The notes beneath the pieces were generated by a model that was given only the letters and a program-made list of their open reading frames with translations, was not told where the DNA came from and did no database searches. A stretch of DNA of 64,000 nt from Microbotryomycetes sp. JL201 (taxonomy: Eukaryota; Basidiomycota; Microbotryomycetes), in contig JAQYUZ010000013.1 in assembly GCA_033819885.1 (NCBI GenBank), forward strand, positions 62,001 through 126,000, read 5' to 3'. Shown one piece after another: positions 13,012-55,500 of this stretch (position 1 is the stretch's first letter; each line of letters begins with the position of its first letter). The translations under genes and the position numbers were made by a program.

Positions 13012-16000
13012 ATGGCACTTGATGTGGCATTATCGCCCCCGCCCCGCAGACGCAGGCGCCCTGCCAACTCGACGCTGGTCGTGCGACAGCATCCTGGCAC
13101 CTCACAGGCGACGGCTGCAGCGCGTAGGACAGCCCTGGCAAGCATATCAGACACGGTCAGGACTTTGTCGCCTGCACATTCAGATACTGGTCGTCAGGAA
13201 GGGAGATGCCGATCGCGGAGCTCACGTGACCTGGCCAGCGATGTCGAATGTGACAGACCGGAAAATAGGGTGTTCAAGAGCGCAACGAACGACCAGGACG
13301 CGCCAATCGGCTCGAAGATCGTCTGCCATGAGTCGGCTTCGCATCTGACGTCGGTGGCACAAGCTCAAGATGAAGCCAGTATGTCTGAACTCCATGCCTT
13401 ACACTGCGCTTGCGTCAATCTTGTTATCTGCAGCATCATCCAGCGTTGCCAAGGCCACTGCAAATGGTCTCAGCAAGCCTTCGCTCGAAAGGGCCGTTCG
13501 GTTTCATTCGCCACCGCTGAAAGCGGCGCGTGCTCCCCGGCAGAAGATTGCACTCGTCCGCGGCAGTGAACTTTCTGAGCGATCGAGCAGATTACTAAGG
13601 CGCTGTTCCGAAGAATCAGACGAGTCCAGCCAAAACGTGACGGCGCCTGTGTCTCACAAACGAAGAATGCCTCGCACAGTGCCACAAGCATCTAGTGACG
13701 AGGATGAACCGGTCGGAGATCCTTGTACAATTGGCATGAGGGTAAAGCAGCGAAGGCGAAAGCAGGCGACTGAGGCACCGCCTGGGCTTCATCCTCAGCT
13801 TTGTGCCGAGGCAGGTGATTTCACCGAAGATCATCGCAACTTGCGTCAAGAGCTTTTTCAGGCGCGTGCTAACCAGACAAAGTTGTTGCAACAATGCAAG
13901 GCACGTGCTAGAGCGGTGCTGCGACCGGTTCAGCCACCGCCTGCAAAGACCTTTGTCACTCCACCGTACCCGATTGCCAAGCGTGCGCCACCTCTCGCTC
14001 TGCACACAGTGTCACAATGTTCGTCAAGCGACGGGAGTGAGTTGCGGTCAGACGTCAAGCCGAGGCCCCGAATGGCTCGCCTGAATCAAGCTCAGCGTAA
14101 CCACTTTCTCGACTCTATCGCGTCGACAGCTTTTCGCACCTCTCCAACCGAACATAACGTTCCAGCTGTTCCATCGCGTCGTCGAGACGCGCCCTTGCCT
14201 CTAAGCAAACGTTTGCCAGGTCGTTCGGTAGTGAAGGACGCGGCGATGCAAGCTTCGGCACGCGCCGTCGAAAGTGGACGCAAGATGCTTGAGCTGGTTC
14301 CTCTTGAAGAGCTGGTCTCCGAAGAGCACGAAAGGTGTGTTTCTGGTGCTGTCTTGCAGTAACTTGTGCTAAAATCGACTTCCAGCACGGACGAGAGGGT
14401 CGCACGTTCGGATCGCCGAGCAATGGCATATGACACGCCAAAAGAGTCCCCTCACCCGTTTCAAATTCATTCTGAGCGTCCCTGCAATGTAAAGGTAGAA
14501 GCACGTGCCACAAATCGACGGGTGGTGAGTCCCAGGAATCAGCAGATTCTTGTTTCGGATTCCGAAAAGTCGGATGGGCCACGAGATCCTAGAGAAGCGC
14601 AGATGGAAGAACTCAGGCGGCTACCTACTCCGCCAGAGTCGAAGTTTCGCTTCGTCACGAACGTCTATCGGTCGGACACGATGTCATGTCTGCGACCTCC
14701 GCTCCTCACGCCATCGGATGCGCCAAGTCGTACTCGACCTCCTGCGCAGCGAGATACGGCTCGCATACAGGTCCTGCAACAACTTTACGAGTCCGAAGAT
14801 TACGGAGTTGGTGGCAATGTAGCTCGTCCCTCGCTACTCTTAAAAAGCTCCGAGCCCAGCGAGATTGAAGCCGCGGACAGTTCCCCTTGCGACAGTGCAG
14901 ATATTGTGCCAAGCGATGTTTTCGAATGTGATCTAGCTCCGAATTCGAAACGAACAATGTTCAACGGTCTCCCACACGCAAGACCTCGAATTCAGCGGTC
15001 GCGAACGATACACATTCAGCCGCCGCGGCGCTGCCTCGGTGCCATTCGACGAGTCAACACCACCTCTTTACCGTATCGACCTTCTTCCAGCGTCGTACCT
15101 CGTGCAGGTGGCGTCGCCAAGCCTTTGCGCAGACTGTCAACGCGGCCGCAATTCCGAATGCCGCATTCTCCGACCCCTGTCCTGCACGGCTCACAATCTG
15201 CTCGCCTCCCTGCACTCGACAACCGCGTCATTGGACAAGGTGATCTCGAATCAGAGTCTCCTGACAAAATCGACTTCGAGCCAGAGCCGGAATGGAAATC
15301 CGGATGCATCGTAGATGATCTTGTACCGGCGCAGCAAAGAGCAATGTTCGATTCCAGCAGACGGTCATCCAGCGAACTCGTCGGTGGTGCCGCCAGCCCA
15401 GCTGATGGCAAACCACTGACATACGAGAATCCGCGCCTCACTCCGACCTCTATGGCCAGCATCAGTAGTGGAGACTTTGTCAACCCCGCGACAATTGACC
15501 TTGAACTGCGCCGGCGGAGCAAGCTCGTGGACTCTTTGCCACAGTCCTCGCACGAAGTTCAGTATCGGATCAACTCTACGGCAGAGCGCATTGCAGAAGC
15601 AGAGAGACAAGCCAAGCAAGACTCGACAAGTTCGATTCATGCCCAAAGCAAGAAGTACGATGTGGCAATGAGCCAGATCGGAGTCGAACTGTCTGCTCCA
15701 CGGTCAACATTTGAGGGCTCGTTTGAGCTTCAGGAGCAAGATTTTGACATCGTTGACCGGCTCGCACAGCAAATGCCAATCAGTACAGACAACGGTGGAC
15801 ATCAAACACGGGCCCCGGCGTCGGTGGCGAGAACTACGAAACGTCGATTGAGAGGTCCGCCACCGCCTTCCGATCCGACTGCTCTAGTGTCTCTGCCATC
15901 CACTTTTGCTTCTGGCTCCAAGCGGGGACGGATACCTAGCATCAAGAGAGCCACGACAGTGTGGGGAGGTCACAGGGTTGACTCGCTTGGTATTGTCGAA

Positions 16001-16027
16001 TTGCACACGTTAGTGTCGGAGCGGTGA
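13012..16027 (+). CDS. Large disordered orphan protein (969 residues)
   Basis: Not recognised. Three exons join cleanly in phase: 13012-13378, 13434-14334 and 14386-16027, giving exactly 970 codons with the stop. The introns are GTATGT...CTGCAG and GTGTGT...TTCCAG. The product is rich in Ser, Arg and Pro and almost free of hydrophobic segments. It has basic clusters (PPPRRRRRPA, KQRRRKQ, TTKRRLRGPPPP) and acidic-serine clusters (EESDESSQN, SSDEDEPVGD, SDSEKSDGP) that resemble CK2-type phosphorylation sites. A short helical stretch near EDHRNLRQELFQARANQTK may form a coiled coil. The composition suggests a nuclear, phosphorylated scaffold (chromatin, telomere, kinetochore or repair), but that is inference only. 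The clean splicing and long open frames argue that it is real. Confidence 0.72.
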
Positions 16028-21762: not shown

Positions 21763-23385
21763 CAGTACCTTGGTCGTTTGCTGTCGCCATATCCGCCGGC
21801 CGGGTTGTCGAAACCACGCTTTTCTCCGCCGAACCCACCTCCGCCGCCTCCAGCTCTGGAACCATAACCGCTGTCTGGTCCGCTCTGTCCCTGTCGTAGG
21901 CACGTAGATAAGCATCTTTGCCTGCTTTAAGCTTGAACTAGCTCACCTGGAAACCACCTCGGCCACCACCGCCACCACCAAAGCCTCCTCTGAAGCCGCC
22001 GCCCCCTCCACGAGGTCCGCCAAACCCACCTCTTTGGACAAAGCCGCCACGTCCACCACCACGTCCACCGAAACCTCCTCTGAACCCTCCCCTGAAACCA
22101 CCCATCGGCGGACCCATGTCCATCGGAACTGCGCATCACAGCCCGTTCAGTCTTGTTACGTGATAGTCAGTCGCAAAAAAGCTTTCACTGACCAGGCACA
22201 GCCTTTTTCGGTCGACCTCCCAATCCACCACCGAGGCGACGCGGCTTCCAGTCCTTGACTGTCCGCCCTCGCTCGACGTCAATCATGAGGCGCTTGCCAT
22301 GCAGCTTGAGTCCGTCTGCATCCTTGTAAGCCGCTGTACCGAGCAGGAACAACAATGCTTATGAGCGAAACTAGCTCGGATGGAACAGGTTGGCACGTAC
22401 CTTTCATGTCTCGTTCTCGCTCGTACACAATGAACGCGTACCCCTTGCTCTTGCCTTCAGCGTCTCTGACGAGTCTCAACCTCTCGAGAGGTCCGTACAG
22501 GTCAAATTCGCGGCGCAGCTCAGACTCGCTTACGTCTTTCGGAATGCGAGACACGAACAGCGTCTTGTACGGATCGCCTACAACTTCACGGTCCTCGTGC
22601 GGGTTGTCTGTCAATGACAGCGTCTGTCAGCCTTTTTCTAGTGACGAGACTCGGCCAATACGACTTGCAGTTTTTAATGCCGTCTGCGAGCAACTGTTCA
22701 TGGCGTTTCTTTTTCAATTCGCGCCTCGCCTGCGGCCTGTCGTTGACAGGCAGTTTCTCGATCGCTTCCACCTCAGGATCGCGTCTCTTCTTGGCGTCTG
22801 CAACTGCCTTCGCTGCCGTAGCGTGCGTAGCCTCTGGGATCTCGCCGTCCTCTTCGGGCTTTGGTTTTGCGCCGTCCTCCTCCTTTTTGACAGCATCGGT
22901 CGTGACGACTCCGTTTGTGTTTGCTGCATGCTGATCCTGCTCCGTCGTCGTCGCCGTCGCTGCTGATGCGGCAGCGTCTTCGTCCTCCTTGGCCTTTCTA
23001 GTGGCCGCACGTGCCGCGCGCTTTGATTGCGTCGATTGGCCCTTGCCCTGTGCCAGTTCGGCTTCTTGTTTAGTCTTGTCGTCTGTTACCTCGTCCGGGT
23101 TGTCGCCCTGTTCGAACGCGGCGTTCTCTGCGCGTTCGCGCTCTGTGCGAATCATCTGCAGCGCATCGGCGACAGACAGAGTGCTCGGCTTGGTCGCTTT
23201 GTTCTTCAAAGGCACATCTGGGTCCCTGCCAAGCGGTTTGGCGTACGGCAATGGCGGTCGCGGCGCAAAGAGCCGCAGCAGCTGCGGTGGCAGCATGTGC
23301 GTCTGCAGGAGCAACGCAGACGTGTCAGCGCGTCTGGCCGTGTACTCAAGGTGCTTGCTGTGAGCGCGGGACTGACTCCGACCAT
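21763..23385 (-). CDS. U1 snRNP 70 kDa protein
   Basis: Core U1 snRNP protein that binds U1 stem-loop I and helps recognise 5' splice sites. The N-terminus ([20 protein letters not shown]) is the conserved tail that wraps U1 snRNP. A ~170-residue Lys/Glu/Ala-rich region follows, longer than usual. The RRM has RNP2 (LFVSRI) and RNP1 (KGYAFIVY), followed by [20 protein letters not shown]. The C-terminus is Gly/Arg-rich ([20 protein letters not shown]) and ends DSKRPRY. The start is deduced: frame and family need Met before THMLPP. The ATG at 23385, followed by an 80-base intron (23382-23303, donor GTCGGA, CTGAC branch), supplies it, leaving only the start codon in exon 1. The ATG at 23296 is an alternative. 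Only about 146 bases separate it from the divergent PDI gene. Confidence 0.93.
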
Positions 23386-23531
23386 GGCGACTGAAGCTGC
23401 GGCTCGCTGTGGACGAGTTGCGAGGCAGTCAAAGCGCCGCGCAACGTTCGTCTCGCTCCTGCTTTCGAAGCTCAGGCGACACATCCTCCTGCTCCCCCGA
23501 CTCGATTCATCAGGTCAACCCGCAGGTAGCA
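23386..23531. promoter_or_regulatory. Compact divergent promoter (U1-70K / PDI-like)
   Basis: Only 146 bases separate the two presumed start codons, so the 5' leaders and promoters of both genes must share or overlap this stretch. No TATA box was recognised by eye. Confidence 0.5.
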
Positions 23532-26881: not shown

Positions 26882-28816
26882 ATGGAAATGAATTCGTCAA
26901 GCTCGACGCTCGCCAAACGGGACGACATGGAACCTTCGGAGCCCCACACAGCCGACGACGGAGAATCCCGCCAGACGACCGAGCCGCTCGACGATCGGGA
27001 TATAGAAAAGCAGGTGCTCGGCAAGTTCGTGTCTCCAAGATCGCCATCAAGTGTCTGCCATGGGCGATCATCCACGGCTTCGCCACAGAATGAAAAGCCG
27101 GGGCAGGCTGCGACTGGTCTGCCACTTGATGACTCGCAGCGTATGTCACATCTCGTGTGCGGCGCAATGTACAAAATAGACTGACTTGTTCGTATGTGAT
27201 TGTTAGACCCCGTCAATTTTGCCCACGGCACCAAAATCGTGAGTGCACTTGGTTGAAATTCCCTACCCGCTTCACCTTGCGAGGCCGCATGTTATTTCTA
27301 TTTTGGCAAGAGCTGAGGCTGACAGGCGAACTGAAAACAGCTCATCAACATTGTCCTAAACATATGGGTCCTTTCGCTTACGTACTCGTCTACGGCATAT
27401 GTCGCAAGCGTACCGGCCATCATGCAACGCTTCGGCCTCGGACGAACGGCTGCGATCGTCGGAGTGACGCTCACTGTCCTTGGCTTCGCGGCCGGACCTC
27501 TCTGCTGGGGCCCTATGAGTGAAGTCCTTGGCAGGCGTCGGGTCTACGTTCTCTCAGGCGTCGGCTACATTGCTTTTGCCTGGGGCATGGCTTGTGCCAA
27601 TGACGCAGCCACTCTTCTCGTTGCACGGTTCTTTGTCGGCTTCTTTGGTGCAAGCTCGATTAACAATGTGCCGGCCAGCATTGGCGACTTCACGACCCTC
27701 GTCCAACGAGGGCCTTTTACTATACTATACGCCTTGTGCGCGTTCGCCGGACCAGTGACAGGACCTCTCGTATCGTCTTTCATCGAGGTGCACGCAGGCT
27801 ATAGGTGGAATTTCCGAGTGATGGCTATCTTCATCACTGTGTCGACGATTGCCGCTGCTCTCGTGCCAGAAACGCATGCGCCCACTATATTTAAGCGCAA
27901 GCTGGTCCGTCAGGGTCAGTCGCCACCGAAGCTGTCGCCTTCGCAAGTCATCGCAGTCTACAAAGTAGCTATCAGCCGCCCTCTCGTCTTTCTCTTCACG
28001 GAACCGATAGTGACACTAGTCAGCATTTACCTCTCATTCCTTTACTCGCTGCTCTACGGCTTCTTTGCTGCCTTCGAGGTCGTGTTTGTTGAACGCCGTG
28101 GAATGTCTCTGACCTCTTTCGGCCTCACGTGTGAGTGCCAGCCATGACTATCTATGCATCCGTTTCAAATTGCACGTCACGTCATTGACTTTGCGTTTCG
28201 ACATCTCTTCGTGCAAATGTTTCGCTATTCTCACAGATATCGCTCTTGGTTTGGGCTTCTTCATCGGCTGTGCTCTCCTGGCGACTGTCGGCACAAAATA
28301 CTATACCAAAGAGTCAATCAAAGCTAAGCAAGCCAACGAGAGGACACCTGCCGAAGCACGCCTCATCCTGTCGTACTTTGGCGCAATTCTCTGCCCAATA
28401 TCTCTCATTGTTTTTGCTTGGACGGCTCCCTTCACGCATGTGCACTGGGCGGCTCCGCTCGTCGGCGAAATGCTCTTTGGCTGGAGCATGCTCTCCATTT
28501 TCACATCGTTCGTTCCCTACTTGATTGACACGTATCGTGAGTGTAAAGAATTGAGATGATTGACGTGTCGCTGACCCTCGTATGCGACTTTGTAGAACAA
28601 ACGGCCGCATCGGCATTGGCAGCTGGCATGGCCAGCAGAGCCCTCTGCGGCAGCGTCTTTCCTCTCTTCACTATACAGATGTATCACAGCTTGACGATTC
28701 AATGGGCAACGATGCTCCTTGCGTTCTTATCTCTCTTGCTTGCACCTATTCCCTTTTGCTTCAAGCAGTATGGTCCTCGTCTTCGTGCCATGAGTAAGAA
28801 CGCTGCTTGTACTTAG
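26882..28816 (+). CDS. DHA1-type major facilitator (drug or polyamine:H+ antiporter)
   Basis: Twelve-helix MFS exporter of the fungal DHA1 (TPO/FLR-like) group. It has a ~95-residue polar N-terminus (MEMNSSSSTLAKRDDMEPSE...). The first helix starts NPVNFAHGTKI|LINIVLNIWVLSL. Motif A is GPMSEVLGRRRVY, typical of this group, and the antiporter motif C region is FAGPVTGPLVSSF. A central loop (FKRKLVRQGQSPPKLSP) leads into the second half (PLVFLFTEPIVTLVSIYLSF, WMLLAFLSLLLAPIPF-like end). Introns near 27140, 27240, 28130 and 28540 are GT-AG and restore the frame (SQ-HPVNFAHG, GLT-YIALGLGFF, DTY-EQTAASALA). The product ends MSKNAACT. The substrate is not deducible. The polar tail may take phosphorylation. 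Confidence 0.9.
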
Positions 28817-29291: not shown

Positions 29292-29709
29292 ATGTCCCGC
29301 ATCTTTGCCCAAGTTGCTCGTGAACCTGCACTTTTGCCTCTCGTCGCCGCAGTAAGTTTCGAATGCAGGCTGTAGCGGCGTGTAGGAACACTTGCTTGAA
29401 TTCCTACGCTCATAGGTCGGAGCTGGTTGCGTCGGCGCCGGAGCGTTCGCAGTTCACTACCTTCGCAGCTCGCCAGACGTAGTCATTGCCAAGAGCAAGT
29501 CGCGAGACCCATGGAACCAAATCACCCAGGGACAAAACACAAAATTGTTTTCGTACCAGCCCGATTTTTGGGCCGGTCGTGCAAACATGCCTGACCCACG
29601 TGCCATGTTCAAGCAAGATGGTGCCAACGACCAAGCTGCCGTCGAGCGCGCAAAGGCCATCAAGGACGCCAAGCTGCGCGCTGCAAAAGACGACTTGGCC
29701 GCTCATTGA
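29292..29709 (+). CDS. B12D/NDUFA4-like small mitochondrial protein
   Basis: Small single-helix protein of the B12D/NDUFA4 (MLRQ) family, which associates with respiratory complexes in the inner mitochondrial membrane. Two exons: MSRIFAQVAREPALLPLVAA (29292-29351, donor GTAAGT) joins GTCGGAGCTGGT to give VGAGCVGAGAFAVHYLRSSP, the membrane helix and typical end. The family DPWNQ stretch and a charged C-terminus (KAIKDAKLRAAKDDLAAH) follow. Length is about 115 residues, slightly longer than animal NDUFA4. It converges with the AIG2-aminotransferase gene, only about 70 bases separating the stops. Whether it belongs to complex I or complex IV is not visible. Confidence 0.82.
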
Positions 29710-29779: not shown

Positions 29780-32380
29780 CTAATCTTGGCTCGCATTGAG
29801 CTGTTCACATACTTGCTTGACAATATTTGCCACGTCGACAAAGTCTTGCACCTCGGTGTACACCTGGGCCGACAGCCTCGTCCACGGCTTGTCGTCGTGA
29901 CTGTTCTTGAATCGTCAGCATGCAATGCCAGCGAGAGAGAGATCGTTCGAAGGCTCACATGAAGAAAGGCACCATCGTCTTGCGTTTGCATTGCTCGGCG
30001 TGGAACGTTGTACGAATATGTGCAATGCGCTTCAGTCGCTCCTTGGGCTCCAAATCAGCCGAAGGCAAGTCGATAGGCAAGCGAACATTGATCTGGTCCC
30101 ACAAACGGTCAATGCCACCTTTGGTTCCAACGACGGAGAAACCGGCAAACTCACCATGTTGGCTACGAGTTGTCCGTCTTTTTCAGGGTCTTTGTTCTCC
30201 ATCGTCTCGGTTCCGAGAATCTCTGCAAAAGCGCGACCACCTTCGAGAGCCAATTCGTGACAGTATTTGGTAATGCGTTCCTCGCCACCGAGAACATCTT
30301 TTCTGAAATCCAAAGCGTCGACCGTCGACAAGATGGGTGAAAAGTCAATAGTTCCGTTCCACTGAAAAGCAAGATTAGTTATACGCGCACCTTCTCAATG
30401 ACAGCTACTGCGCGATTACCTCGAATTCGAGATGCCATGCCGGATCCTCTGCTGCTTTGCCTTCAAGTCGGTTTCTGTAGTAATGACCTGTCGGGATCGA
30501 ATGCACGAGGTGCTGATATCTATTCACGGAAAACAGTTGGGTAACGTCACGGAAGGCGTGAAAACCGAACGTACGGTTTTGAAACGTAAAGGACGGCGCA
30601 GCCTCGGTGCGCGAGCAACCACTTGTGACAGTTAGATACCCAGAAATCAGGCTTTGACTCTCGCAAATTGACTGGCATTTGACCAATCTCGTGTGCGGCG
30701 TCGACGAGACTGCAGTCAAAAGTTAGTGGGTTCGGAACAAAAGATTCGAGTCCTTGGCTCACCTCAGAATGTCATGCTCCTTAAACAATTTGACGAGGTC
30801 GTGCCAAGGTACAACGACGCCAGGGTTTGACGAGATTGCATCGACTAGGGCGAGTCTGATCTTGCCGCCACCTTTGCGTTCGTTGTCGAGAATGGCTTGC
30901 TTGGTTGCTTCGATTACGTCTCCGTGAGACATGGGGTACTTTAGGACAACGGGGACGGTTTCGAGCTCCAAGTGAGGATGAGAGTCGATGATGTATCTGA
31001 TTGTGGCCGAGCAAGCCTCGTAGCTGAGCAAAGGACAATCAGCGCGCGGCGCGGACGAACTTTGGGGCACACTGACATGGTTGTCGAGTAGTACAGGATC
31101 TTGTCTCCTTTCTGCCAGTGTGTGGTCAAACCTCGCATGACAGAGTTGACGCCCATTGACGCGTTGCTGACTCTGTTTTGATAAAATGGGATTAGATCCG
31201 TGGCTCGGGGAGACCAAGCGAGCGAGAGACTGACATGGCTAGATCGTCCATATCGCAATGAACGAAATCGGCGAGCCTACCACGCATTCTGTCCAAATCT
31301 TTCATGTATTCGAAGCGCATGAACTGGTCCGGCATCGAGTTTGAGCGGTCCTGATGCCGACGGAACGAGTCAAGGACGGGCTTTGGCGCAACACCGTAGG
31401 ACCCTGCCGACAGCACAAGTGAGGAATATTGTTTCAGAAACTGAGCAGCTCGGCTCACCATGATTCAAGTTGATCCAACCGCGCTGGAAATTGAAGTACT
31501 TGCGCGCGAGGCTGCGACCGAACTCTTCGACAACAAGGGTGCCGTTCTCGTGCTTGCCATTCGTCAACTCTGCCTTGACCTTTTCCGCGACTTGCTTGAC
31601 GCCGGTGGGCGTAATGTTGCCGTTCATGGCCCTTCTGCGATCTACCTCTTTGTACTCGCCGCGGTCCTCGCCTTCCTTGCCAATCCACTTGTGCGCCGAG
31701 TCGCGCAAGAAGTCTTCAAAAGTCCAGAGCGATTGCTCAAGTCTCGAGAGTGGATCCGTCCACACGTATACCTCGGCGTTCTCCAGCTCTCCGGTGGCGA
31801 GTTGGACGTGGACGGGCAAACGCTTGTATTCCTGTGAGTGCACAGTGAGCTGCGACACGGTGAAGCATGTGGCGCACGAATACTCACGTTGCCTTCAAAC
31901 TCGTCGAGGAGTGCGACGTCCGAATCTGTCAAGCCTTTGACGAGGCTGCCTTGAACTCGTGACTCTTCTCGAGTCAAGTGGCGACCCATGACGAGCCTGC
32001 CGTCCTTTGCTGAGACGACCGCCGGATAATCTGCATTCCCGGTTCAAATCGATTGTGGGGCAAATTGAGAAATGAGTCAGCCATGGTAAAAATGGACTTC
32101 GGCCCGTCGGACCGCGAGGAGCCTAACCTTCGCCTGTGACGTGATGACGGGTGTGTTCAGGTAGGATCGCGTCGCAGTTCGTCAGATGGGTGCAGTCGTT
32201 GCCAATGACGCGTGCCAAAATGGCTGGATGTACCTGTCGGCGACAGAGTTTGTCGTCAGCAATCGTTCATCCCGAGAAGTGGGGGCTCAATCCTAAGAAA
32301 GAGGCAACGAGAACACCAGAAGCGGAACAGAGTATGTCACTTGCCAATGTGCCATAGAAGAAGAGGCTGTGAGTACCCAT
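29780..32380 (-). CDS. Fusion of an AIG2/gamma-glutamyl-cyclotransferase-like domain and a class V PLP aminotransferase/lyase
   Basis: Two-domain enzyme of about 630 residues. N-terminal AIG2-like domain: [12 protein letters not shown] (substrate-binding YGTL turn), [29 protein letters not shown], the catalytic-Glu motif [17 protein letters not shown] and the closing [17 protein letters not shown] ~35-residue linker leads in the same exon (31858-31370) to the aminotransferase: [37 protein letters not shown] (Asp for the pyridine nitrogen) and [18 protein letters not shown] (PLP-binding Lys). It resembles isopenicillin-N-epimerase-like and C-S lyase-like enzymes and ends [11 protein letters not shown]. 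The first intron (32344-32234) opens GCAAGT; joining YGTL to VHPAIL is exactly what AIG2 proteins show. About eight introns. Family knowledge: AIG2 enzymes release 5-oxoproline from gamma-glutamyl groups, and class V lyases often cleave C-S bonds. A sequential role on gamma-glutamyl-cysteine compounds is inference. Confidence 0.85.
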
Positions 32381-32620: not shown

Positions 32621-34299
32621 ATGGCTGCTACAGTCGGCGCCCAAGAGGCAGAACCCGGCGCGGCTGCCGCTCACGCTGCTGCGTCACAAGCAGCAACGCC
32701 TTCGTCGCCGCTGACACTCACACCGTCCGTCATGGCAAGTGAACTTTCGCCCGTGCCTATCAAATATACCATGCTTATTCGCAGCGCGATGCTTTATAGA
32801 GCTCGTTCAAACCTGCGCGCGTCTTTAAACCAGAGGACGAGCCAGACTCGTTCACGTCAATCTCATTCACCGACGACGGCAAATTTGCGGTCGCAGCAGC
32901 AGACGACGAAGAATTACACATTCTTGACGCGTACTCGGGAACGTGAGCCAGCGCAGAGACTGTCTTAATTGTCAACAAAGGCCCGAGCTCAAACTATCGA
33001 TTATTCGACAGGTACAAGCGCAAAATTGCAGTGCATCAACATGGAGTCGGTCTGGTCAGGTGCACCCACTCGAACTCTGCTGTGCTACACACAAGCACGA
33101 GAGCCCAGTGTGAGTTTGAAGCGTCGACAACCCTCGCGTATGCTCAAGTATTGGCTATCCAGTCAACGTGCAATACCTCGCACTAGACGAGCACAAATAC
33201 GTCAGGTCGTTTCGAGGTCACGAGGGACCGTGAGTCAATCGTCGACGCCGTCCGAGCTAGAGCTCAACCTGTCTCCCTTTGCAGTATAGTGTCGCTGGCC
33301 GTTTGTCCAAAAGACGACACGTTTTTGACCGGAGGCGACAATGACGCTGTTAAAGTATGGGATCTACGCAAGCCAACCGCAGTGGTATGTATCGTGCGGC
33401 TCGAATGTGCCTGTCAGCTGACAAAAGGGTTCGGACAGGGATCTCTCGAGATTGCGAATCATTCATGCGTCGCGTACGACCCTGCCGGCATGATTTTTGC
33501 CGTTGGGTTGAACCTCAAGATGAGCGTGTCCCTGTATGATCGACGCGCGTTCAATCAGCAACCGTTCTTGACGTTCGTGATTGACGACATGATTGGAAAG
33601 ACGTCCGAACCAGGTCGCACGCCAATCTTGACTAGCCTACAATTCTCAAACGATGGAAGTTGCTTGCTCGTGGGAACAAGTTCGGACCTGCATTTTGTTT
33701 TAGATGCGTTCGACGGACGAATTCTGGCGAGGCTTGTCAGTAAGTGACGCATTGTCGGTACTATGCAGGCACGAACGTTTGTAATGACTGCTCTCCACCA
33801 CAGCGGAAGAGCAAACGCAAGGATTCATGAGAGCTGGACCCGGACTTGAAAGAGCTACCGAGTCACCTCACACACTGCCGATCGAGCCTACTGCCGGTAT
33901 CAGTGGCGAAGAGCTGTCGTGGTCACCTGACGGTCGCTTCATTGTCAGCGGTCAGTCTGGTTCATAGTTTGATCATCGACAGCCCGTCAGCTGATGAAGA
34001 CGACGATTTGCAACAGGCTCCATTGACGGCAAGCTCAACATATGGGATATGCAAACAACAGACGAGCGCGCCCAATCTGGGTCACCGTACGGTCCAATGC
34101 ACAATCTGTTTCCCCTCAAGACACTCGATGCGCACGGCAGTCCAAGCCGGGCCGTTCAGTTCAACCCGCAGAGGGCCATGTTTGCGTCCGCCGGACGAGA
34201 AGTTGTACGTCAGAGGCACGGATGTCGTATGCGTGCGCCCCTTTCTGACCGATTGTTTCGTAAATCAAGGCATTCTGGCTGCCGGACTTGACTGCGTGA
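32621..34299 (+). CDS. SWD2: SWD2/WDR82-type WD40 protein (COMPASS and 3'-end processing)
   Basis: WD40 protein shared by the Set1/COMPASS H3K4 methyltransferase and the cleavage/polyadenylation factor; nuclear. Exon 1 (32621-32734, 38 codons, Ala/Ser-rich) ends TPSVM and joins SSFKPARVFKPEDEPDSF, a near-perfect match to the conserved SWD2 start. The intron (32735-32799) opens GCAAGT; the available GT alternative breaks the frame. Repeats follow: ISFTDDGKFAVAAADD, YVRSFRGHEGP, VSLAVCPKDDTFLTGGDND and VKVWDLRKP, LTSLQFSNDGSCLLVGTSSD, LSWSPDGRFIVSGSIDGKLN. The protein ends FASAGREVAFWLPDLTA, again typical. About seven exons. The Ala-rich N-terminal extension before the first repeat is longer than in yeast. 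Confidence 0.92.
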
Positions 34300-34329
34300 T
34301 CTTGCCTCGGCGAGCAAAATCCTTCTTCT

Positions 34330-37657: not shown

Positions 37658-39907
37658 ATGGTCGACGACGACCTAGTGTCTGGATGGGTGTCCAAGCTTG
37701 GCATCAACGGTAGCGGCGCTGCCGCTGCGACTGCGACTGCGAGGGCGAGTAGTGCAACGCGAGCTCACGAGGCCCGCGCTCAGCCGCCGCCACCGCCGCC
37801 GCCGCACACACAGCCACAGGACCACTCTGCTATCGACAGCTCGATGCCATCAAAGCTCGAGCAGCCTTACTTTCTGCCGCAGCTGTGGCTTGCCCGGCGC
37901 ACGCACTGCGTCGAGCTCTTGCGCGCACACGGCGTCAGAAGCGTAAGTTTGCGACAGACGCGTCGTGCCAGGCACAGGCATACGATCCGAACTAGCAGTC
38001 TCGACTGCATGTCTCAGCCTCAGAGCTTCTCGGGCTACAACTACTGCGCTCGGAACCCCCAACGAGCGCGCTCGCTTTCCTCCGTGTTTGAACCCCGCAC
38101 TCCGCAGAAATGTGCACTCCTCGCGCGCGCACGCGCGCACACAGAATCAATCCGCCGAGCTGACTGCGACTCGTCGCTCATTTCCGGCCTGCCACACAAC
38201 AGGTAGCAGACTTGGGATGCGGGCAAGGAGCCATCATATCATTGCTCACAATCCCGTCAGACTCCATTGACGACTTTCCGTCGCTCTACCCGCCGCCAGA
38301 GGTCCTGCCGTCATCGCCCTCGTCGCCGAGCGTCACGGCTCCGAGCGCGGTTCATCGATCGGCAAAGCTCGACACACTCAGGCGCGTGCCGCGCAAACCT
38401 CTCAAAGAACAACAACTACACCTCACCAGACTCGTCGGCGTCGACATTGACAAGCGCAGCCTCGCCAGAGCCGTCGAGGTAACCGCCCCTCCGCCACCGG
38501 ATGGCGACGTGGCATCAACGTCGGTGCCTGCATTCAAGGACAAGGAGAGATGGGAGGACTTGTCGGTTGACCTGTACGAAGGCGGCGTCGAAGTGTACAA
38601 CCCGGCACTCGAACGCATTGAAGCAATGGTCTCCAGCGAGGTCAGTCACGGACCGCCAAGACGTTTTCAGCCGTCTGACACTGCACTTTTGCACGCACGC
38701 ACAGGTCATTGAGCACATGACACCGAGCGCGTTCACCAAGTTTGGCTCTACCGTGCTCGGTTTGTACGGACCTCGCTTGCTCATCGTCACCACACCGAAT
38801 CACGAGTTTAATCCGTACTTTATGCCGAGCTCAGCGGTCGAAAGCACCTTGAATCAAGTACTAGATCCGACAGCACGCACAAACAGAAGGTTCCGAGACG
38901 ACGATCATAAATTTGAATGGACGCGAGCCGAATTTGAGGAATGGGCCACGCAGCAGGCAGACGAGTGGGACTACCAAGTAAAGTTCAGCGGCGTTGGCAG
39001 CTTGGCCAACTATTTTGGCACGCAAGATCGCAGCAAGATTCCGTTTCCACCGCCCAGTCTTGCAGCGCATCCAGACCTGGCCAACGCCCCAGCCTCGCTT
39101 GCCGTGCCAGACGACCCGTCGACGTTTTACTCGACACAGGTAGCTGTGTTTACCAAGATTATACCAAACGAAGCTGAGCGGTCACCACGGTCACACAAGC
39201 CGACACCGCTTCCGTTCTTCTATTCTCCGTCGACCTCGAATAATTTGCCGCTGCCTGGCACGCCACCGACACCGACTTCGGTCGTCTCGATCGACGATTC
39301 TGGAACGAGCGGGCAGACCCAAGCGAGACCCAAGCTGTACGGTAGAACCATGACGTCTCCGACGCCCCATCACCTCGTCCAGACGCATTTGCACCATGCC
39401 CATCCTTCAGCGTCCGTCCCAGCGCCACCTCAGATCATCTTACGGGACGTTCGCAAGATTTTGCGCACGTGTTCGGACGAAAGAGATCGCCATACGATCG
39501 TATTGAACCGGTTGTGGCACCAATTTGAACAGGTTCGAGAAGCATGTGGAGGCATCATGGGCAGTCTGATTGAAGCGTTGCTCGACGACGACCGGGACCT
39601 CGAGTTTGAATTCGAGCTGATTGAAGGGAAAAGTGGTGACGAAGCTTTAAAGGTCGTTTGGAAACCTGTGACGGAATCGGAATCGGATGATGAACGTGGC
39701 GACGAGTTGACGCCGAACAGTTCGGCTACGCCCCTGGACGATGGAGAGGATGACCATGACGGTTACGATCAAGTGGATGAAATTGTTGGTGGATGGCAAA
39801 ATGATGACGATGATGATGACAATTGGTCGGCGCCCCCTGCTTCGCCTCCTGCGATGAACCCGTTGGTGAACGGTATTGCGCCGCACACATACGCTGGCGC
39901 GTGGTGA
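37658..39907 (+). CDS. HEN1: HEN1-type small RNA 3'-terminal 2'-O-methyltransferase
   Basis: Methylates the 2'-OH of the 3' terminal nucleotide of small RNAs, protecting them in RNA interference. Exon 1 encodes MVDDDLVSGWVSKLG, an Ala/Pro-rich linker and YFLPQLWLARRTHCVELLRA. Exon 2 begins VADLGCGQGAIISLL (SAM-binding) and carries LVGVDIDKRSLARAVE. Exon 3 gives the metal-binding signature EVIEHM, then VTTPNHEFNPYF and FRDDDHKFEWTRAEFEEW, so the E-x2-E-H...H set is intact. A ~60-residue Ser/Pro-rich insertion separates the SAM motif from GVDID. A ~250-residue C-terminal extension ends in an acidic Asp run before SAPPASPPA. No La-like or dsRNA-binding domain is seen, so this is the minimal fungal/animal form with added disordered parts. 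Confidence 0.93.
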
Positions 39908-50279: not shown

Positions 50280-51230
50280 CTATAGCACGGCAGCTGCACC
50301 AACGAAGCCGCCGAGGACAGCGATGGCTCCTGCCACAACCCAAGCGCGATCTGCCAAAGTGACCACAGCGGGTGCTGCCGCGGACCGTTGGTTGATTCGC
50401 TTGCCGGCGGGAGTCGAGACGCCGGAGGCGTACGTCGTGATGTCTGGGCAAGAGGTCATCGTCAGCAATTTGGGCCAGCACAGAACGTTGCTAAGAAAGC
50501 TGATTCACAATTGCTGGCGGCCAGAATTGATCCGGTAGACCATGCGGATGGCGTCGGGGTGATGGGTGTAGTCGCTGTCCAGGTGAAGAGCATTGACGAT
50601 TCTTGGCCACTATGAACGGGGTTGTTAGTCTGACATAGTGCCGAGCCTGTCGTTTGGCAGAACTGCTTACGCAATAGTGGTGACTTGAGTATACGTTGCT
50701 GAACAAAAAGATAGCTCGATGTCAGTGGCACCAGAACATCGCAAGACCTTGCACTGCGGAGTAACTGACTTGGTGCGACGGGGCAGCCCGCTGTCGTGCA
50801 GGTGGAATGGTCAAAGTCTTGGCCGTTGTTTTGTACTGTGGTTTGCGTCGGGGTCGCAACTGCGCCCGTCAAGCGCAAGAGCGTGCGTGTGCTTGTAGGG
50901 TCGCCGTCGGCGTCTGTCGCAACCGACGCGACGACCGTCATGTCCTCGCTGGATTTGGAAGGCATAGAATCAGCGTCTGTAGCGAGGCCTGCTGCGATCC
51001 GACATTCTCCCACAGTGAGGTGGACAGACGCGCGCGCGCGCGCACGCCAAGGCGGTGCGGCGCAGACGACCCGTCTGATGCCAGAAGGACGCGCGCAACT
51101 GGGGGGACGTCCAGGCGAGCAGGGCAACAAAGACTCACTCTGGGTCGTACGAGGTCGTCCGCTGCGCCTGAGCAGCCGTGGCAACGAGGCCAACGGCGAG
51201 CAGCGCCGCAAACATCCGCGAACGAAACAT
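50280..51230 (-). CDS. Secreted, probably GPI-anchored Ser/Thr-rich surface protein
   Basis: Not assigned to a named family. The ATG at 51230 opens MFRSRMFAALLAVGLVATAA followed by QAQRTTSYDPE, a classic signal peptide with an AQA cleavage site. The mature part is Ser/Thr/Ala-rich (ATPTQTTVQNNGQDFDHSTC, CPVAPSQ) and contains a stretch SSMLFTWTATTPITPTPSAW. The last exon ends SAAAPAVVTLADRAWVVAGA, then IAVLGGFVGAAAVL, a hydrophobic tail with small residues upstream as expected for GPI addition. Four or five short exons; inner joints are approximate. A CG dinucleotide run occurs inside the gene (51029-51043). Probable cell-wall or plasma-membrane protein. It diverges from NDUFS5 across about 165 bases. 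Confidence 0.7.
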
Positions 51231-51394
51231 GACGGGGCGGGCGTACTGCGATGTACAGAACAAAGAAGCGCTCTACAAAGGCTGCCTTGTTGTACTCAGA
51301 GGAGACCCGGATGCGGCGTTGGCCGGGATTGAGATTGGTCAAGGGCAGAGGACAGCTGGCCCGGTTTGCCCTCTCGCCAGCACATCGCAGCACC

Positions 51395-52123: not shown

Positions 52124-52594
52124 CTAGGGATTGGGCATGTAATGCAGAGCTGTGAATCGTACGGATGCGCGCTCGTGCCAGTCTGAGCACTCTGAGTGCT
52201 TTTCTTGGCTCGAAAGCTCATGTTCTGTACAGTTCAAGCTGCGATAGGACATGCATTGATTCATGCGTGCCCTGTGGTCATCTCTTGAAGGCTGAAAGCC
52301 GACTCGATCGATCTTCTTGGCTCCTGACACTGGACAGCACATGCACGTGACAGGATCCTACCGACCGTAGAAGGACAGCTCGGGAATTTTCGATGATGAC
52401 AATGATGTTCTTTACGCGTCAAAGGTCTGCGTGATGCTGAAAGATGTCAAGCGCAGATTGCCTCGGCGTTTGCTTCTGATGCGTCGAAACAAGCTCGGCC
52501 TTTGTGTTACGAAGCTCCACTTCGGGTTGCGAGCTCGCCGTGAGCCCGCGCCGTTTTCCATAGCCCGTCACATGGTTCGGATACGTCGCGTCGC
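52124..52594. other. Intergenic upstream of the WD40 gene
   Basis: About 470 bases. Short frames on either strand show no signature. Probably the NDUFS5 3' end and the WD40 gene promoter. Confidence 0.45.
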
Positions 52595-55500
52595 ATGACG
52601 AGTCGGCCAGAGACCACGTCGCCCGGCCGGTATGGCTTGGCTCCTCTGCAACTGGACGATCGCACGGGGCGAATGCCCGGTGGCACGGGCCTCGCGCGGG
52701 CCCGCAGTCACACAGATTCCGTCGTCGTGCCAGAGATCGTCCTGTCGCCGTCAAGTCCAACTCAAGGGGACGACGTACAAACGCTGTCGCGCACGTCGAG
52801 CGATTCCCAGCAGCGTAGACCGACGATGCCGCTCGAACGACGAGGCTCGGACAGCGACAGCGCAACAACTGCGCTACAACACGTGAATCATGAGCTTGAT
52901 CACAGCAACTCGGATGACAACACACCGCTTGCGACGCCAACCATGTCGCAAGACGTGCACACGAAGCGTTTTAGCTATCTCGGCTCCGCGTCGGAACTAC
53001 GCGACCGAACACAATATGACGAAGACACGCCAACGAACACATCGTTACCGTCTACGGTTGCAACAGATATCGAACCAGTATTTGAGCAATTGACGATCAA
53101 GACAAGGGCCGCGCCGCCACCGCCAGCCAATAACTCCAGCTCGTCTGGCTCTGGTTTCTCGTTCGGATCGTTGTTGCCGTCAATATCAATGCCGACGTTC
53201 AATCTCAGCTTGAGCAACTTTGTCCCGAGGACTTTGACGTCAGGACCGGCACTGACTCTCGTTTCGGACGAGACACGTGAAAAGGGATCGGCCGATGGCT
53301 CGGACAGCGAAGGCGAGCAATTCGACGCCGAGGTGGACGCACTTGAGCAGGTACGAACGCAGCGTCGCGCAGGACCCAAAGTAGAAACAGCGAGCAAGTG
53401 GGGCGTCAACCTCGACATTGCAGCAGGTCAGCGGTGACCTTGATCGTGATTGCCTTTGGCTCTATGCTAACCTGAAACCTTCGTCCATGAGCAGCTCAGT
53501 CCCCCGGTCCAGCATCAGATGATACTGTCAGACCAAATTCACCAGGAACGCCATCTTCTCAACGGCCTGGTGCCACACTTATTCGCACCGTCTCATCGGC
53601 AGAGTTTGTGGCGGCATCACAAGATTCGGGTATTCATCCGATGACATTGCATGCCATTGCACGGCGGGAATCAGAAGCAGATGCCCTCAAGCTTGTTCGA
53701 GACTGGGACCGGACCGAACGCAGTCGAGGGTCTCGAGCCGACGATTTTCTAGAAGAAGAGAACAGCGACAGTGATGCAGAAGAAGGGGCGCCGCGAAGAC
53801 CGCCGGTTCTCAAACGCAAAGAGAGCTGGTCAAGGGGCATGTTCTCGCTCAATGGTCAACCATCGTTATCGAGGAGCGAGAGCCCAACGGGCAGTGGCAC
53901 GAAGACCCCAAGGAGGTTGGCGACAACCGGAGCTTTGGGTTCCGTGAGAGAGGCGGAGCAGGCTGAGAACGATGTGCGACAGACGCACCAAGACTTGCCT
54001 CAAAGGAGACGCAACAGTGTGTCGAGCTTGGGCGAGTTGGCTGCTTCGTCAACACTTGTGGAATCGCCAGTGTCCACTGCCATGCCTTACACCATCGAAG
54101 CCAGCCCAGTCACGTCTGAGAATGGCGCTGGACCTTCGCCTACGAAGAAGAAAGGTTTCTTCAGCAGACTGAGTGGCGGCAATCGCAAAGGACGCGCCGT
54201 GTCAATGTCATCCCTCAAATCTGAAGTGTCTGCGGCACCACTAGCTACGCCCCCGTTGTCTGTAAACGGCAATGGTTTCGACTTGCCTGCCACTCCGACT
54301 TCAACAGGCAAAGGTGACAAAGGCAAAGACAAGAGCGCGATAAGAATGGCGAAGGTGAGTTGAGCGCATGGTGTGCTTTGTATCACGTACTGAAAGATTG
54401 TCATTCTTGCTTAGGTCAAAACTCGAAACAAGTCTCACAAAGACTTTGGCAAGCTGTTCTTGGCTCAGGAACTCGTCGTGAACGAAGCGGCGGACGCAAA
54501 CTCGACTTTGCCGCCGCCCACACCATCCAAAACATCGTTCAGCAGAGACGGAGCTGACAGCGCTTCTATGCACTCGCAAGATGATGTCTCGATGCATTCA
54601 AACCAGGACGGACAGGCGAGGCACAGTAAGCCTAGCGCGGCTGGCCCTGGTCGCAAGAAGAATGCAGTTTGGGCGATAAAGTTTTCGGAAGACGGGCGAT
54701 ATCTTGCTGTTGGAGGCAAGGACGGAGTTGTTAGAGGTGAGTGCGTTGTGGAGTGCTCGATCGAAGGTTGACGCTTCGTGCTCGACAGTCTGGGAAGTGC
54801 TGTCGACACCGGAAGATCGCAAGAAAGCCGCCGAGGCGCCTCTCGACCCGAGTGCACCTCTGACGTCTCCTACAGGCTCGCAATTCTCTGCGCAGTCTGC
54901 GCCCGGAGCTACTGAAAATCCCTCAGCCGCACCGCCTGCCAAGCTCGCCACGAAACGTAAGATGACGACAGAGTCCCGATCGAGTGCGAATGGGGCCACT
55001 GCAACGAAGCCGGGGTCTGTCAAAGTGCCATGTAACGTCCTTCCCGTGTTTAGTCGTAAGCCGTTGCACGAATATCGTGGCCACAGCGCAGACGTGCTGG
55101 ATTTGAGCTGGAGCAAAGTGAGTGCGCCTGTGTCTGGTCCGTCTCTGCCTGTGCTGATCTGGCGTTCCGATAAGAACAACTTTCTTCTGTCTTCATCTAT
55201 GGACAAGACTGTCCGGTTATGGCACGTCTCGCGGCCAGAGTGCTTGTGCGCGTTCCAGGTGCGATCAATACTTGCGCAATCCTAGGCATACTCTGGCTCA
55301 CGGCGGATCTTGCAGCATCTCGATTTCGTCACCTCTATCGCGTTCCATCCGAAAGACGATAGATTCTTCCTGTCTGGCTCGCTCGATTGCAAGCTGAGGC
55401 TGTGGAATGTGAGCTTGACGACAGTGACATCATTATGATGATTGACTTTGCCGGGCCTGTAGATACCAGAGAAGCGCGTTCAAGTGGGTGGTTCTTGTCG

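What the first reader, a model, noticed from the sequence alone, without database searches (positions are those of the whole stretch)
29780..32380. An AIG2/gamma-glutamyl-cyclotransferase-like domain fused to a class V PLP enzyme
Seen: one frame (31858-31370) runs from the end of a complete AIG2-like domain ([16 protein letters not shown]) through a ~35-residue linker into the PLP enzyme ([11 protein letters not shown]). Both halves keep their key residues: YGTL and the LLDEFEGN glutamate in AIG2; the Asp of [11 protein letters not shown] and the Lys of SNCHKWL in the PLP fold. Known: AIG2/GGCT enzymes release 5-oxoproline from gamma-glutamyl groups; class V relatives include C-S lyases. Inferred: the fusion may remove gamma-glutamate and then cleave a C-S bond of a gamma-glutamyl-cysteine conjugate (glutathione breakdown, sulfur recovery or thiohistidine-type chemistry) in one polypeptide. 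I do not know of a described enzyme with this pairing.
Basis: partly seen in the sequence, partly recalled or inferred. Interest (0 to 1): 0.72.

Follow-up and report, generated by a model that had tools for sequence, protein, structure and literature searches.

The report
Gamma-glutamyl enzyme fused to ergothioneine lyase
A fungal gene joins, in one protein, an enzyme domain of the kind that strips gamma-glutamyl groups and a close relative of the enzyme that finishes the antioxidant ergothioneine, which raises the testable idea that this fungus feeds or trims that pathway through gamma-glutamyl compounds as some bacteria do.

Summary
On the minus strand, 32380-29780, a 12-exon gene model encodes one 626-residue protein: an AIG2/GGACT domain (PF06094, E 1.6e-14) and a class V PLP domain (PF00266, E 4.7e-18). 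One exon, 31831-31459, runs from the AIG2 end through the linker into the PLP start; the linker has coding codon usage, and 103 of 20,000 shuffles of that exon stay open. The PLP half is specifically Egt2-like, a hercynylcysteine sulfoxide lyase relative (N. crassa Egt2, E 9.5e-82, 40% identity), with 11 of 16 functional residues identical. No second copy of either half was found in the 17.15 Mb fungal genome, and an Egt1 gene lies about 75 kb away on the same contig. So the fusion is probably this fungus's Egt2. The AIG2 domain keeps catalytic residues, but its substrate is unknown. An EgtC-like step on a gamma-glutamyl intermediate is possible; the reported cysteine use of fungal Egt1 weakens it. 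My searches found no paper on the pairing, but no eukaryotic sequence collection was available, so its distribution is untested.

The parts
29780..32380 (-). whole fusion gene, 12 exons, 626 aa
   Evidence: manual splice model, frame intact to TAG
32345..32380 (-). exon 1, aa 1-12, [12 protein letters not shown] (AIG2 start)
   Evidence: GC-AG intron follows in the model
32234..32344 (-). intron 1, GC-AG, 111 bases
   Evidence: joins YGTL to [11 protein letters not shown] in frame; an alternative GT-AG splice is possible by eye
32128..32233 (-). exon 2 (AIG2)
31888..32030 (-). exon 3 (AIG2, with catalytic-type Glu E93 in DEFEGN)
31459..31831 (-). exon 4, the bridging exon: AIG2 C-terminal part, linker aa about 166-197, start of the Egt2-like domain ([21 protein letters not shown])
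31235..31403 (-). exon 5 (Egt2-like; Y222, R249)
31077..31172 (-). exon 6 (Egt2-like; A280, S281)
30763..31023 (-). exon 7 (Egt2-like; Y309, T330, S373)
30575..30709 (-). exon 8 (PLP site: D398, H401, N421, H423, K424)
   Evidence: the PF00266 match of this locus (E 5.2e-4) lies here
30420..30519 (-). exon 9 (Egt2-like; H452)
30155..30361 (-). exon 10 (Egt2-like; W474, T477)
29959..30092 (-). exon 11 (Egt2-like)
29780..29900 (-). exon 12 (Egt2-like C-terminus; R595; stop TAG)

Best explanation
The gene encodes a two-domain enzyme of ergothioneine biosynthesis. Shown by sequence: an N-terminal AIG2/GGACT-family domain with the catalytic-type residues is joined through a linker of about 32 residues to an Egt2-like PLP C-S lyase domain. 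It is the only Egt2 relative found in a genome that also has Egt1. Inferred step 1 (likely): Lys424 holds PLP, and the domain cleaves hercynylcysteine sulfoxide made by Egt1 into ergothioneine sulfenic acid (then reduced by a thiol), pyruvate and ammonia. Inferred step 2 (moderate): the AIG2 domain is an active gamma-glutamyl cyclotransferase that releases 5-oxoproline from a gamma-glutamyl-cysteine-type compound of the same route. This would be gamma-glutamyl-hercynylcysteine sulfoxide formed when Egt1 takes gamma-Glu-Cys, or gamma-Glu-Cys itself as a cysteine source, so that thiol held as gamma-glutamyl compounds can flow into ergothioneine. My odds by step: one fused gene 0.93; PLP half is the functional Egt2 0.85; AIG2 half catalytically active 0.7; it acts on a gamma-glutamyl thiol of the ergothioneine route 0.4.
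For: Spliced frame intact over 12 exons. Pfam GGACT aa 6-121 and Aminotran_5 aa 226-535, both over the cut-off. Best solved relative of the PLP half is N. crassa Egt2 (5uts, E 9.5e-82), then 5v12/5v1x; the next distinct protein is 8dl5 (E 9.9e-54). Identity 40% to NcEgt2 and 32% to 8dl5. Of 16 NcEgt2 functional residues (numbers from passages of PMC10805701; K247 recalled), 11 are identical in the fusion against 9 of 16 in 8dl5; R75, N244 and H276 are shared with Egt2 and absent in 8dl5. AIG2 half: nearest solved relatives 2jqv ('AIG2 protein-like', E 4.3e-11) and 2g0q ('AT5G39720.1 protein', E 7.8e-7); Y9, G10, E93, Y97 and Y117 are shared with both, and YGTL equals mouse GGACT Tyr7-Leu10 (site list in passages of PMC2954230). 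PHROGs gives one weak match, a gamma-glutamyl cyclotransferase family, E 0.0016. No second copy: 9 of 9 matches of the Egt2 half at E <= 0.01 are this gene; for the AIG2 half 3 of 4 matches at E <= 10 are this gene and the fourth has E 0.73. Egt1: PF10017 has 3 matches, all at C5:13698-14680, and PF03781 has 1, C5:15590-15916; one 901-aa frame over 14 exons, C5:12841-16440.
Against: No activity data. Five of 16 Egt2 residues differ: F48Y, T107S and F304W are mild; Q224H and C156T are not. Q224 is reported conserved between NcEgt2 and MsEgtE, and 8dl5 also has His there. Fungal Egt1 is reported or presumed to use cysteine, and this Egt1 has Tyr at the NWD position of 4x8b, so a gamma-glutamyl intermediate may not form. 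Score ranks do not settle the Egt1 type: EgtB-IV 8vih E 1.6e-21, 4x8b E 1.7e-13, and the C. thermophilum EgtB 6o6l E 1.1e-9, although the last is described as cysteine-using (passage of PMC11993508). Egt2 homologues occur without Egt1 in flowering plants (passages of PMC13358676), so such a domain need not make ergothioneine, and an A. fumigatus candidate, egt2a, lowered ergothioneine in yeast (passage of PMC9502471). The NCBIfam scores of Egt1 are below their cut-offs.
Confidence: 0.45

Rival explanations
1. Bifunctional by tethering only: the PLP half is Egt2, and the AIG2 half is a general gamma-glutamyl cyclotransferase (gamma-Glu dipeptides or gamma-glutamylamines) with no substrate in common; the fusion gives co-expression, stability or localisation.
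For: Both halves keep catalytic-type residues. The genome has separate ChaC and gamma-glutamyltranspeptidase exon matches for glutathione turnover, so this AIG2 domain may have another job. Fungal Egt1 is reported to use cysteine.
Against: The pairing is the only AIG2-like and the only Egt2-like copy found, and gamma-glutamyl thiol chemistry is next to ergothioneine chemistry in bacteria (EgtB/EgtC; passages).
Confidence: 0.35
2. The AIG2 domain is a non-catalytic appendage (dimerisation, regulation, redox sensing) of an ordinary Egt2.
For: NcEgt2 works without such a domain; it has only some additional sequence before its N-terminal domain (passages of PMC10805701).
Against: YGTL, E93, Y97 and Y117 are all kept; a decayed domain would be expected to lose some of them.
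Confidence: 0.12
3. The PLP half is not Egt2 but a sister C-S lyase or cysteine desulfhydrase, and the protein belongs to glutathione-conjugate or sulfur-recovery metabolism.
For: Q224H and C156T differ from NcEgt2; Pfam and NCBIfam see only a generic class V enzyme, and EgtE TIGR04343 scores 24.4 bits against a cut-off of 400; Egt2 homologues without Egt1 exist in flowering plants (passages).
Against: Strong match to NcEgt2 over most of its length, H276 and R75 kept, and Egt1 present without any other Egt2 candidate found.
Confidence: 0.12
4. Artefact: two genes run together by misassembly, or separate transcripts (for instance a downstream start at Met164).
For: No transcript data; in-frame Met164 could start an unfused Egt2.
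Against: The bridging exon is open and coding on both sides and in the linker; in this model the AIG2 frame meets a stop before the PLP domain only if intron 4 is retained.
Confidence: 0.05

Closest known systems
Neurospora crassa Egt2, hercynylcysteine sulfoxide lyase (PDB 5uts, 5v12, 5v1x)
   Same: 40% identity over about 430 residues; PLP Lys, catalytic Tyr134, R438, S196, R75 and H276 positions kept
   Different: NcEgt2 has no AIG2 domain; fusion has F48Y, T107S, Q224H, F304W, C156T
AIG2-like / gamma-glutamylamine cyclotransferase family (PF06094; 2jqv, 2g0q; mouse A2LD1/GGACT)
   Same: Domain passes the Pfam cut-off; YGTL motif, Glu and Tyr positions kept
   Different: Members recalled are single-domain proteins; here it is N-terminal to a PLP enzyme; substrate unknown
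Bacterial EgtC then EgtE (mycobacterial ergothioneine route)
   Same: Would be the same order of steps: gamma-Glu removal, then C-S cleavage (passages)
   Different: EgtC is described as a glutamine amidotransferase, not an AIG2 protein; the two are separate proteins; role here not shown
GliK of gliotoxin biosynthesis (gamma-glutamyl cyclotransferase)
   Same: A fungal cyclotransferase strips gamma-Glu from a thiol conjugate before later steps; gliK deletion raises ergothioneine (passages of PMC6923255; PMC5066259); that a C-S lyase, GliI, follows is recalled
   Different: Separate proteins, different pathway; similarity of GliK to this domain was not tested

Membership tests
Egt2 (fungal hercynylcysteine sulfoxide lyase) | PLP-binding Lys in SNCHKW, with Asp and Tyr of the PLP site | tested here: met
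   K424, D398, Y309
Egt2 (fungal hercynylcysteine sulfoxide lyase) | Published NcEgt2 PLP and substrate contacts | tested here: inconclusive
   11 of 16 identical, 3 mild changes, Q224H and C156T (site list)
Egt2 (fungal hercynylcysteine sulfoxide lyase) | Occurs with Egt1 in the same genome | tested here: met
   901-aa EgtD-EgtB frame at C5:12841-16440; NCBIfam EgtD and EgtB matches E 2.1e-45 and 2.1e-35, below those models' cut-offs
Egt2 (fungal hercynylcysteine sulfoxide lyase) | Cleaves hercynylcysteine sulfoxide to ergothioneine | not testable with these tools
   needs assay
AIG2/GGACT (PF06094) | Score over the curated Pfam cut-off | tested here: met
   54.9 bits against 22.8, profile 1-104 of 120
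AIG2/GGACT (PF06094) | YG(T/S)x motif, catalytic Glu and following Tyr | tested here: met
   Y9 G10 T11 L12, E93, Y97; catalytic-site list of mouse GGACT in passages, compared by motif only
AIG2/GGACT (PF06094) | Releases 5-oxoproline from a gamma-glutamyl substrate | not testable with these tools
   needs assay
EgtC (bacterial gamma-Glu amidohydrolase) | Class II glutamine amidotransferase domain | tested here: not met
   the N-terminal domain is PF06094; PF13230 finds nothing in the genome at E <= 0.1, a weak negative because introns split genes
EgtE equivalog TIGR04343 | Score over 400 bits | tested here: not met
   24.4 bits
Gamma-Glu-Cys-using EgtB (4x8b type) for the partner Egt1 | Asp of the FRNWD motif | tested here: not met
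   aligned residue is Tyr in FQNWYQA; that this Asp binds gamma-Glu-Cys is recalled

The most novel reading that the evidence does not exclude
A fungal gamma-glutamyl branch of ergothioneine biosynthesis: the AIG2 domain acts as a non-homologous replacement of bacterial EgtC, cyclising gamma-Glu off gamma-glutamyl-hercynylcysteine sulfoxide and handing hercynylcysteine sulfoxide to the fused Egt2, so that some fungi do have the de-glutamylation step that the literature says they appear to lack.
Probability: 0.2. Interest if true: 0.75.

Novelty: new variant of a known kind. Interest (0 to 1): 0.52.

Why it matters
The passages read say fungi make ergothioneine from cysteine with Egt1 and Egt2 and appear to lack an enzyme that removes a glutamyl group (PMC4020840, for S. 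pombe; PMC5066259). A gamma-glutamyl cyclotransferase-family domain fused to the last enzyme of the route is a natural candidate for such a step. It would tie glutathione-type thiol pools to ergothioneine in one polypeptide, makes the question testable with a single purified protein, and may matter for yeast ergothioneine production.

Tried and rejected
Searches that led nowhere: PF06094 in the own genome found 0 matches and missed even the window's own AIG2 exons, so that negative was not used; the protein query replaced it. Scans of genome contigs with the Egt2 half and with alignment A1 gave 29 and 34 pattern matches, none a relative; both used narrow peptide patterns, so this does not show absence. 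One viral-contig scan with the AIG2 half: 3 pattern matches, none a relative. tblastn of the whole fusion in plasmids: 78 records matched, 0 covering at least 80% of the query; the 20 rows shown of 78 all match from residue 169 or later, that is the PLP half; the other 58 were not seen. The best one (S. meliloti, 29.4%) lies among phosphonate and lipid genes, with no AIG2 or ergothioneine gene among the 15 features listed, in a gene table that is incomplete. A profile of three AIG2 domains did not reach GGACT in the PDB set, so GGACT residues were compared by motif only. NCBIfam gives only sub-cut-off matches for the fusion in the 25 of 28 families shown.

Other class V enzymes of the genome: 10 of 11 PF00266 matches lie elsewhere; the Egt2 half did not match them at E <= 0.01, with 4 first-look candidates scored.

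Literature: no paper holds AIG2 with aminotransferase class V and fusion, none holds ergothioneine with AIG2. Searches (20 of 33 listed; 8 of 8; 20 of 28) showed no title or abstract start that describes the pairing. The library is open-licence PubMed Central only. The Rhodotorula toruloides paper names RtEGT2 (RHTO_04309); the passages seen give no domain layout and the words domain and fusion do not occur in it. PMC11677154: outline and abstract only. PMC10858013: searched for five terms, none found. PMC10531809: one reference-list passage.

Full report
The finding describes a gene on the minus strand of the window. I built a splice model by eye and checked it by script. It has 12 exons from 32380 to 29780, 11 introns of 53-111 bases, and one frame of 626 residues ending in TAG. 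Ten introns are GT-AG. Intron 1 is GC-AG in the model, which joins FFYGTL to [11 protein letters not shown] without loss of frame; by eye a GT-AG alternative there also keeps the frame. In my Egt1 model from the same contig 4 of 13 introns are GC-AG. The genome is fungal: 36 matches to the fungal transcription factor domain PF04082, 32 of them over the cut-off, with 0 of 14 control prokaryote genomes matching. It holds 17,152,241 bases in 92 contigs, and the window is C5:62001-126000.

The fusion is real at the level of the genome sequence. Pfam finds GGACT (AIG2-like, PF06094) at aa 6-121 with 54.9 bits against a cut-off of 22.8, and Aminotran_5 (PF00266) at aa 226-535 with 65.7 bits against 21.5. 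Exon 4, 31831-31459, carries the end of the first domain, a linker, and the start of the second. Its codon usage, scored with codon frequencies from the Egt1 gene, is positive in frame all along: 0.25 bits per codon for aa 1-145, 0.31 for 146-165, 0.37 for the linker 166-197, and 0.23 for 198-626. The other two frames are negative in each of these segments. The 11 introns reach at most 0.19 in their best frame. Of 20,000 shuffles of exon 4, 103 stayed open.

The PLP half is Egt2-like. By phmmer against the PDB set, the best chain is N. crassa C-S lyase Egt2, 5uts (E 9.5e-82), then 5v12/5v1x (E 3.3e-81). A distinct class V protein, 8dl5 with 9aza and 9azb, comes next (E 9.9e-54 to 7.1e-52), and the remaining 15 of 20 sequences have E 6.1e-11 or worse. 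What 8dl5 does was not looked up. Identity is 40% to NcEgt2 and 32% to 8dl5. The paper on the mycobacterial enzyme (passages of PMC10805701) lists NcEgt2 contacts. Mapping 16 positions (K247 added from recall) gave 11 identical in the fusion: R75, A106, Y134, S196, D221, N244, H246, K247, H276, T307, R438. F48Y, T107S and F304W are mild changes. Q224H and C156T are not. R75, N244 and H276 are not shared by 8dl5; the His at Q224 is. C156 is also absent in the mycobacterial enzyme, so its loss does not exclude the function; the sulfenic acid product would then be reduced by a cellular thiol, as proposed for EgtE (passages of PMC4493562).

The AIG2 half is closest, among solved structures, to 2jqv ('AIG2 protein-like', E 4.3e-11) and 2g0q ('AT5G39720.1 protein', E 7.8e-7); the third and last listed hit, E 0.11, is a ribosomal protein. 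Invariant in the three-way alignment are Y9, G10, E93, Y97 and Y117 among others. The mouse GGACT catalytic site is given as Tyr7, Gly8, Thr9, Leu10, Ile50, Glu82, Tyr88, Tyr115 and Tyr143 (passages of PMC2954230); YGTL and the Glu and Tyr positions have counterparts here by motif. Ile50 and Tyr143 were not mapped. A profile search did not reach GGACT itself. PHROGs gives one match, gamma-glutamyl cyclotransferase, E 0.0016.

Surroundings in the genome support an ergothioneine role. The Egt2 half finds only this gene (9 of 9 matches at E <= 0.01). The AIG2 half finds this gene (3 matches) and one match at E 0.73. EgtD-type PF10017 has 3 matches, all at C5:13698-14680; FGE-type PF03781 has 1 match, C5:15590-15916. 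Splicing that stretch gives one 901-residue frame over 14 exons. NCBIfam matches it to EasF-family methyltransferase (205.5 bits, cut-off 205.55), EgtD (155.2, cut-off 290.9) and EgtB (122.6, cut-off 360), all below the cut-offs, which are set for prokaryote annotation. Egt1 and the fusion thus lie on one contig about 75 kb apart; this was noticed after the fact and may be chance. The genome also has ChaC (2 exon matches) and a gamma-glutamyltranspeptidase (3 exon matches), so general glutathione turnover can be served elsewhere. PF13772 and PF13230 gave no match, but these family searches read exon by exon and PF06094 missed the window gene itself, so they are weak negatives.

What the pair does is the open point. 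In mycobacteria, EgtB couples hercynine to gamma-Glu-Cys, EgtC removes Glu, and EgtE cleaves the C-S bond; fungi are said to use cysteine and to appear to lack a de-glutamylating enzyme (passages). A cyclotransferase fused to the fungal lyase would fit an EgtC-like step, and GliK gives a fungal precedent for a cyclotransferase stripping gamma-Glu from a thiol conjugate in a biosynthetic route; its deletion raises ergothioneine (passages of PMC6923255, and PMC5066259). Against it, the Egt1 of this genome has Tyr where 4x8b has Asp in FRNWD, and EgtB-IV 8vih has Phe. Score ranks do not decide: 8vih E 1.6e-21, 4x8b E 1.7e-13, C. thermophilum EgtB 6o6l E 1.1e-9, the last described as cysteine-using (passage). 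Egt2 homologues also occur without Egt1 in flowering plants (passages of PMC13358676), and an A. fumigatus candidate lowered ergothioneine in yeast, so homology alone is not proof. I therefore hold the Egt2 assignment as likely, the activity of the AIG2 domain as probable, and its place in the route as a hypothesis.

Novelty. Searches of the open-licence library found no paper with the pairing (by the rows listed). No eukaryotic sequence collection was offered, so I cannot say whether the fusion is a lineage-wide feature already visible in public proteomes; I would expect relatives of this fungus to share it. Both domains are known families, so this is a new variant of a known kind: an Egt2-like enzyme with an added gamma-glutamyl cyclotransferase-family domain.

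Noticed in passing
window 32344-32234; L024 (C5:10000-19999) introns: GC-AG introns appear in both genes modelled by hand: 1 of 11 in the fusion and 4 of 13 in Egt1 (donors GCGAGT, GCAAGT twice, GCAGGT). A U1-70K N-terminal domain (PF12220, E 9.2e-10) lies in the same window at 22589-23428, minus strand.
   Followed up: partly
window 29416-29706 (+): Convergent neighbour of the fusion: small frame matching PF06522 (B12D, NADH-ubiquinone reductase MLRQ subunit), E 1.7e-8.
   Followed up: no
window about 32621-34300 (+): Divergent neighbour with WD40 matches in two frames, one over the cut-off (28.5 bits) and one just below (25.8 against 27). Its likely ATG, read by eye, is about 240 bases from the start of the fusion, a possible shared promoter.
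   Followed up: no
window 27338-28144 (+): Major facilitator transporter frame (PF07690, E 3e-26) close to the fusion gene; substrate unknown.
   Followed up: no
G000 C21:44306-44530 (+) and C21:174323-174547 (-): Two PF00266 matches with identical scores (E 3.5e-6, 28.8 bits) on opposite strands of one contig, possibly an inverted duplication.
   Followed up: no
window 14366-16024 (+), 38486-39904 (+), 50465-51295 (-), 52547-53434 (+), 60929-62914 (-): Five stop-to-stop frames (277-662 aa) without any Pfam match at E <= 1e-4, of ten scanned; 13 of the 20 frames of 230 aa or more were scanned together. They need not be genes.
   Followed up: no
whole window: No tRNA by ARAGORN and no Rfam family at gathering score.
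   Followed up: yes
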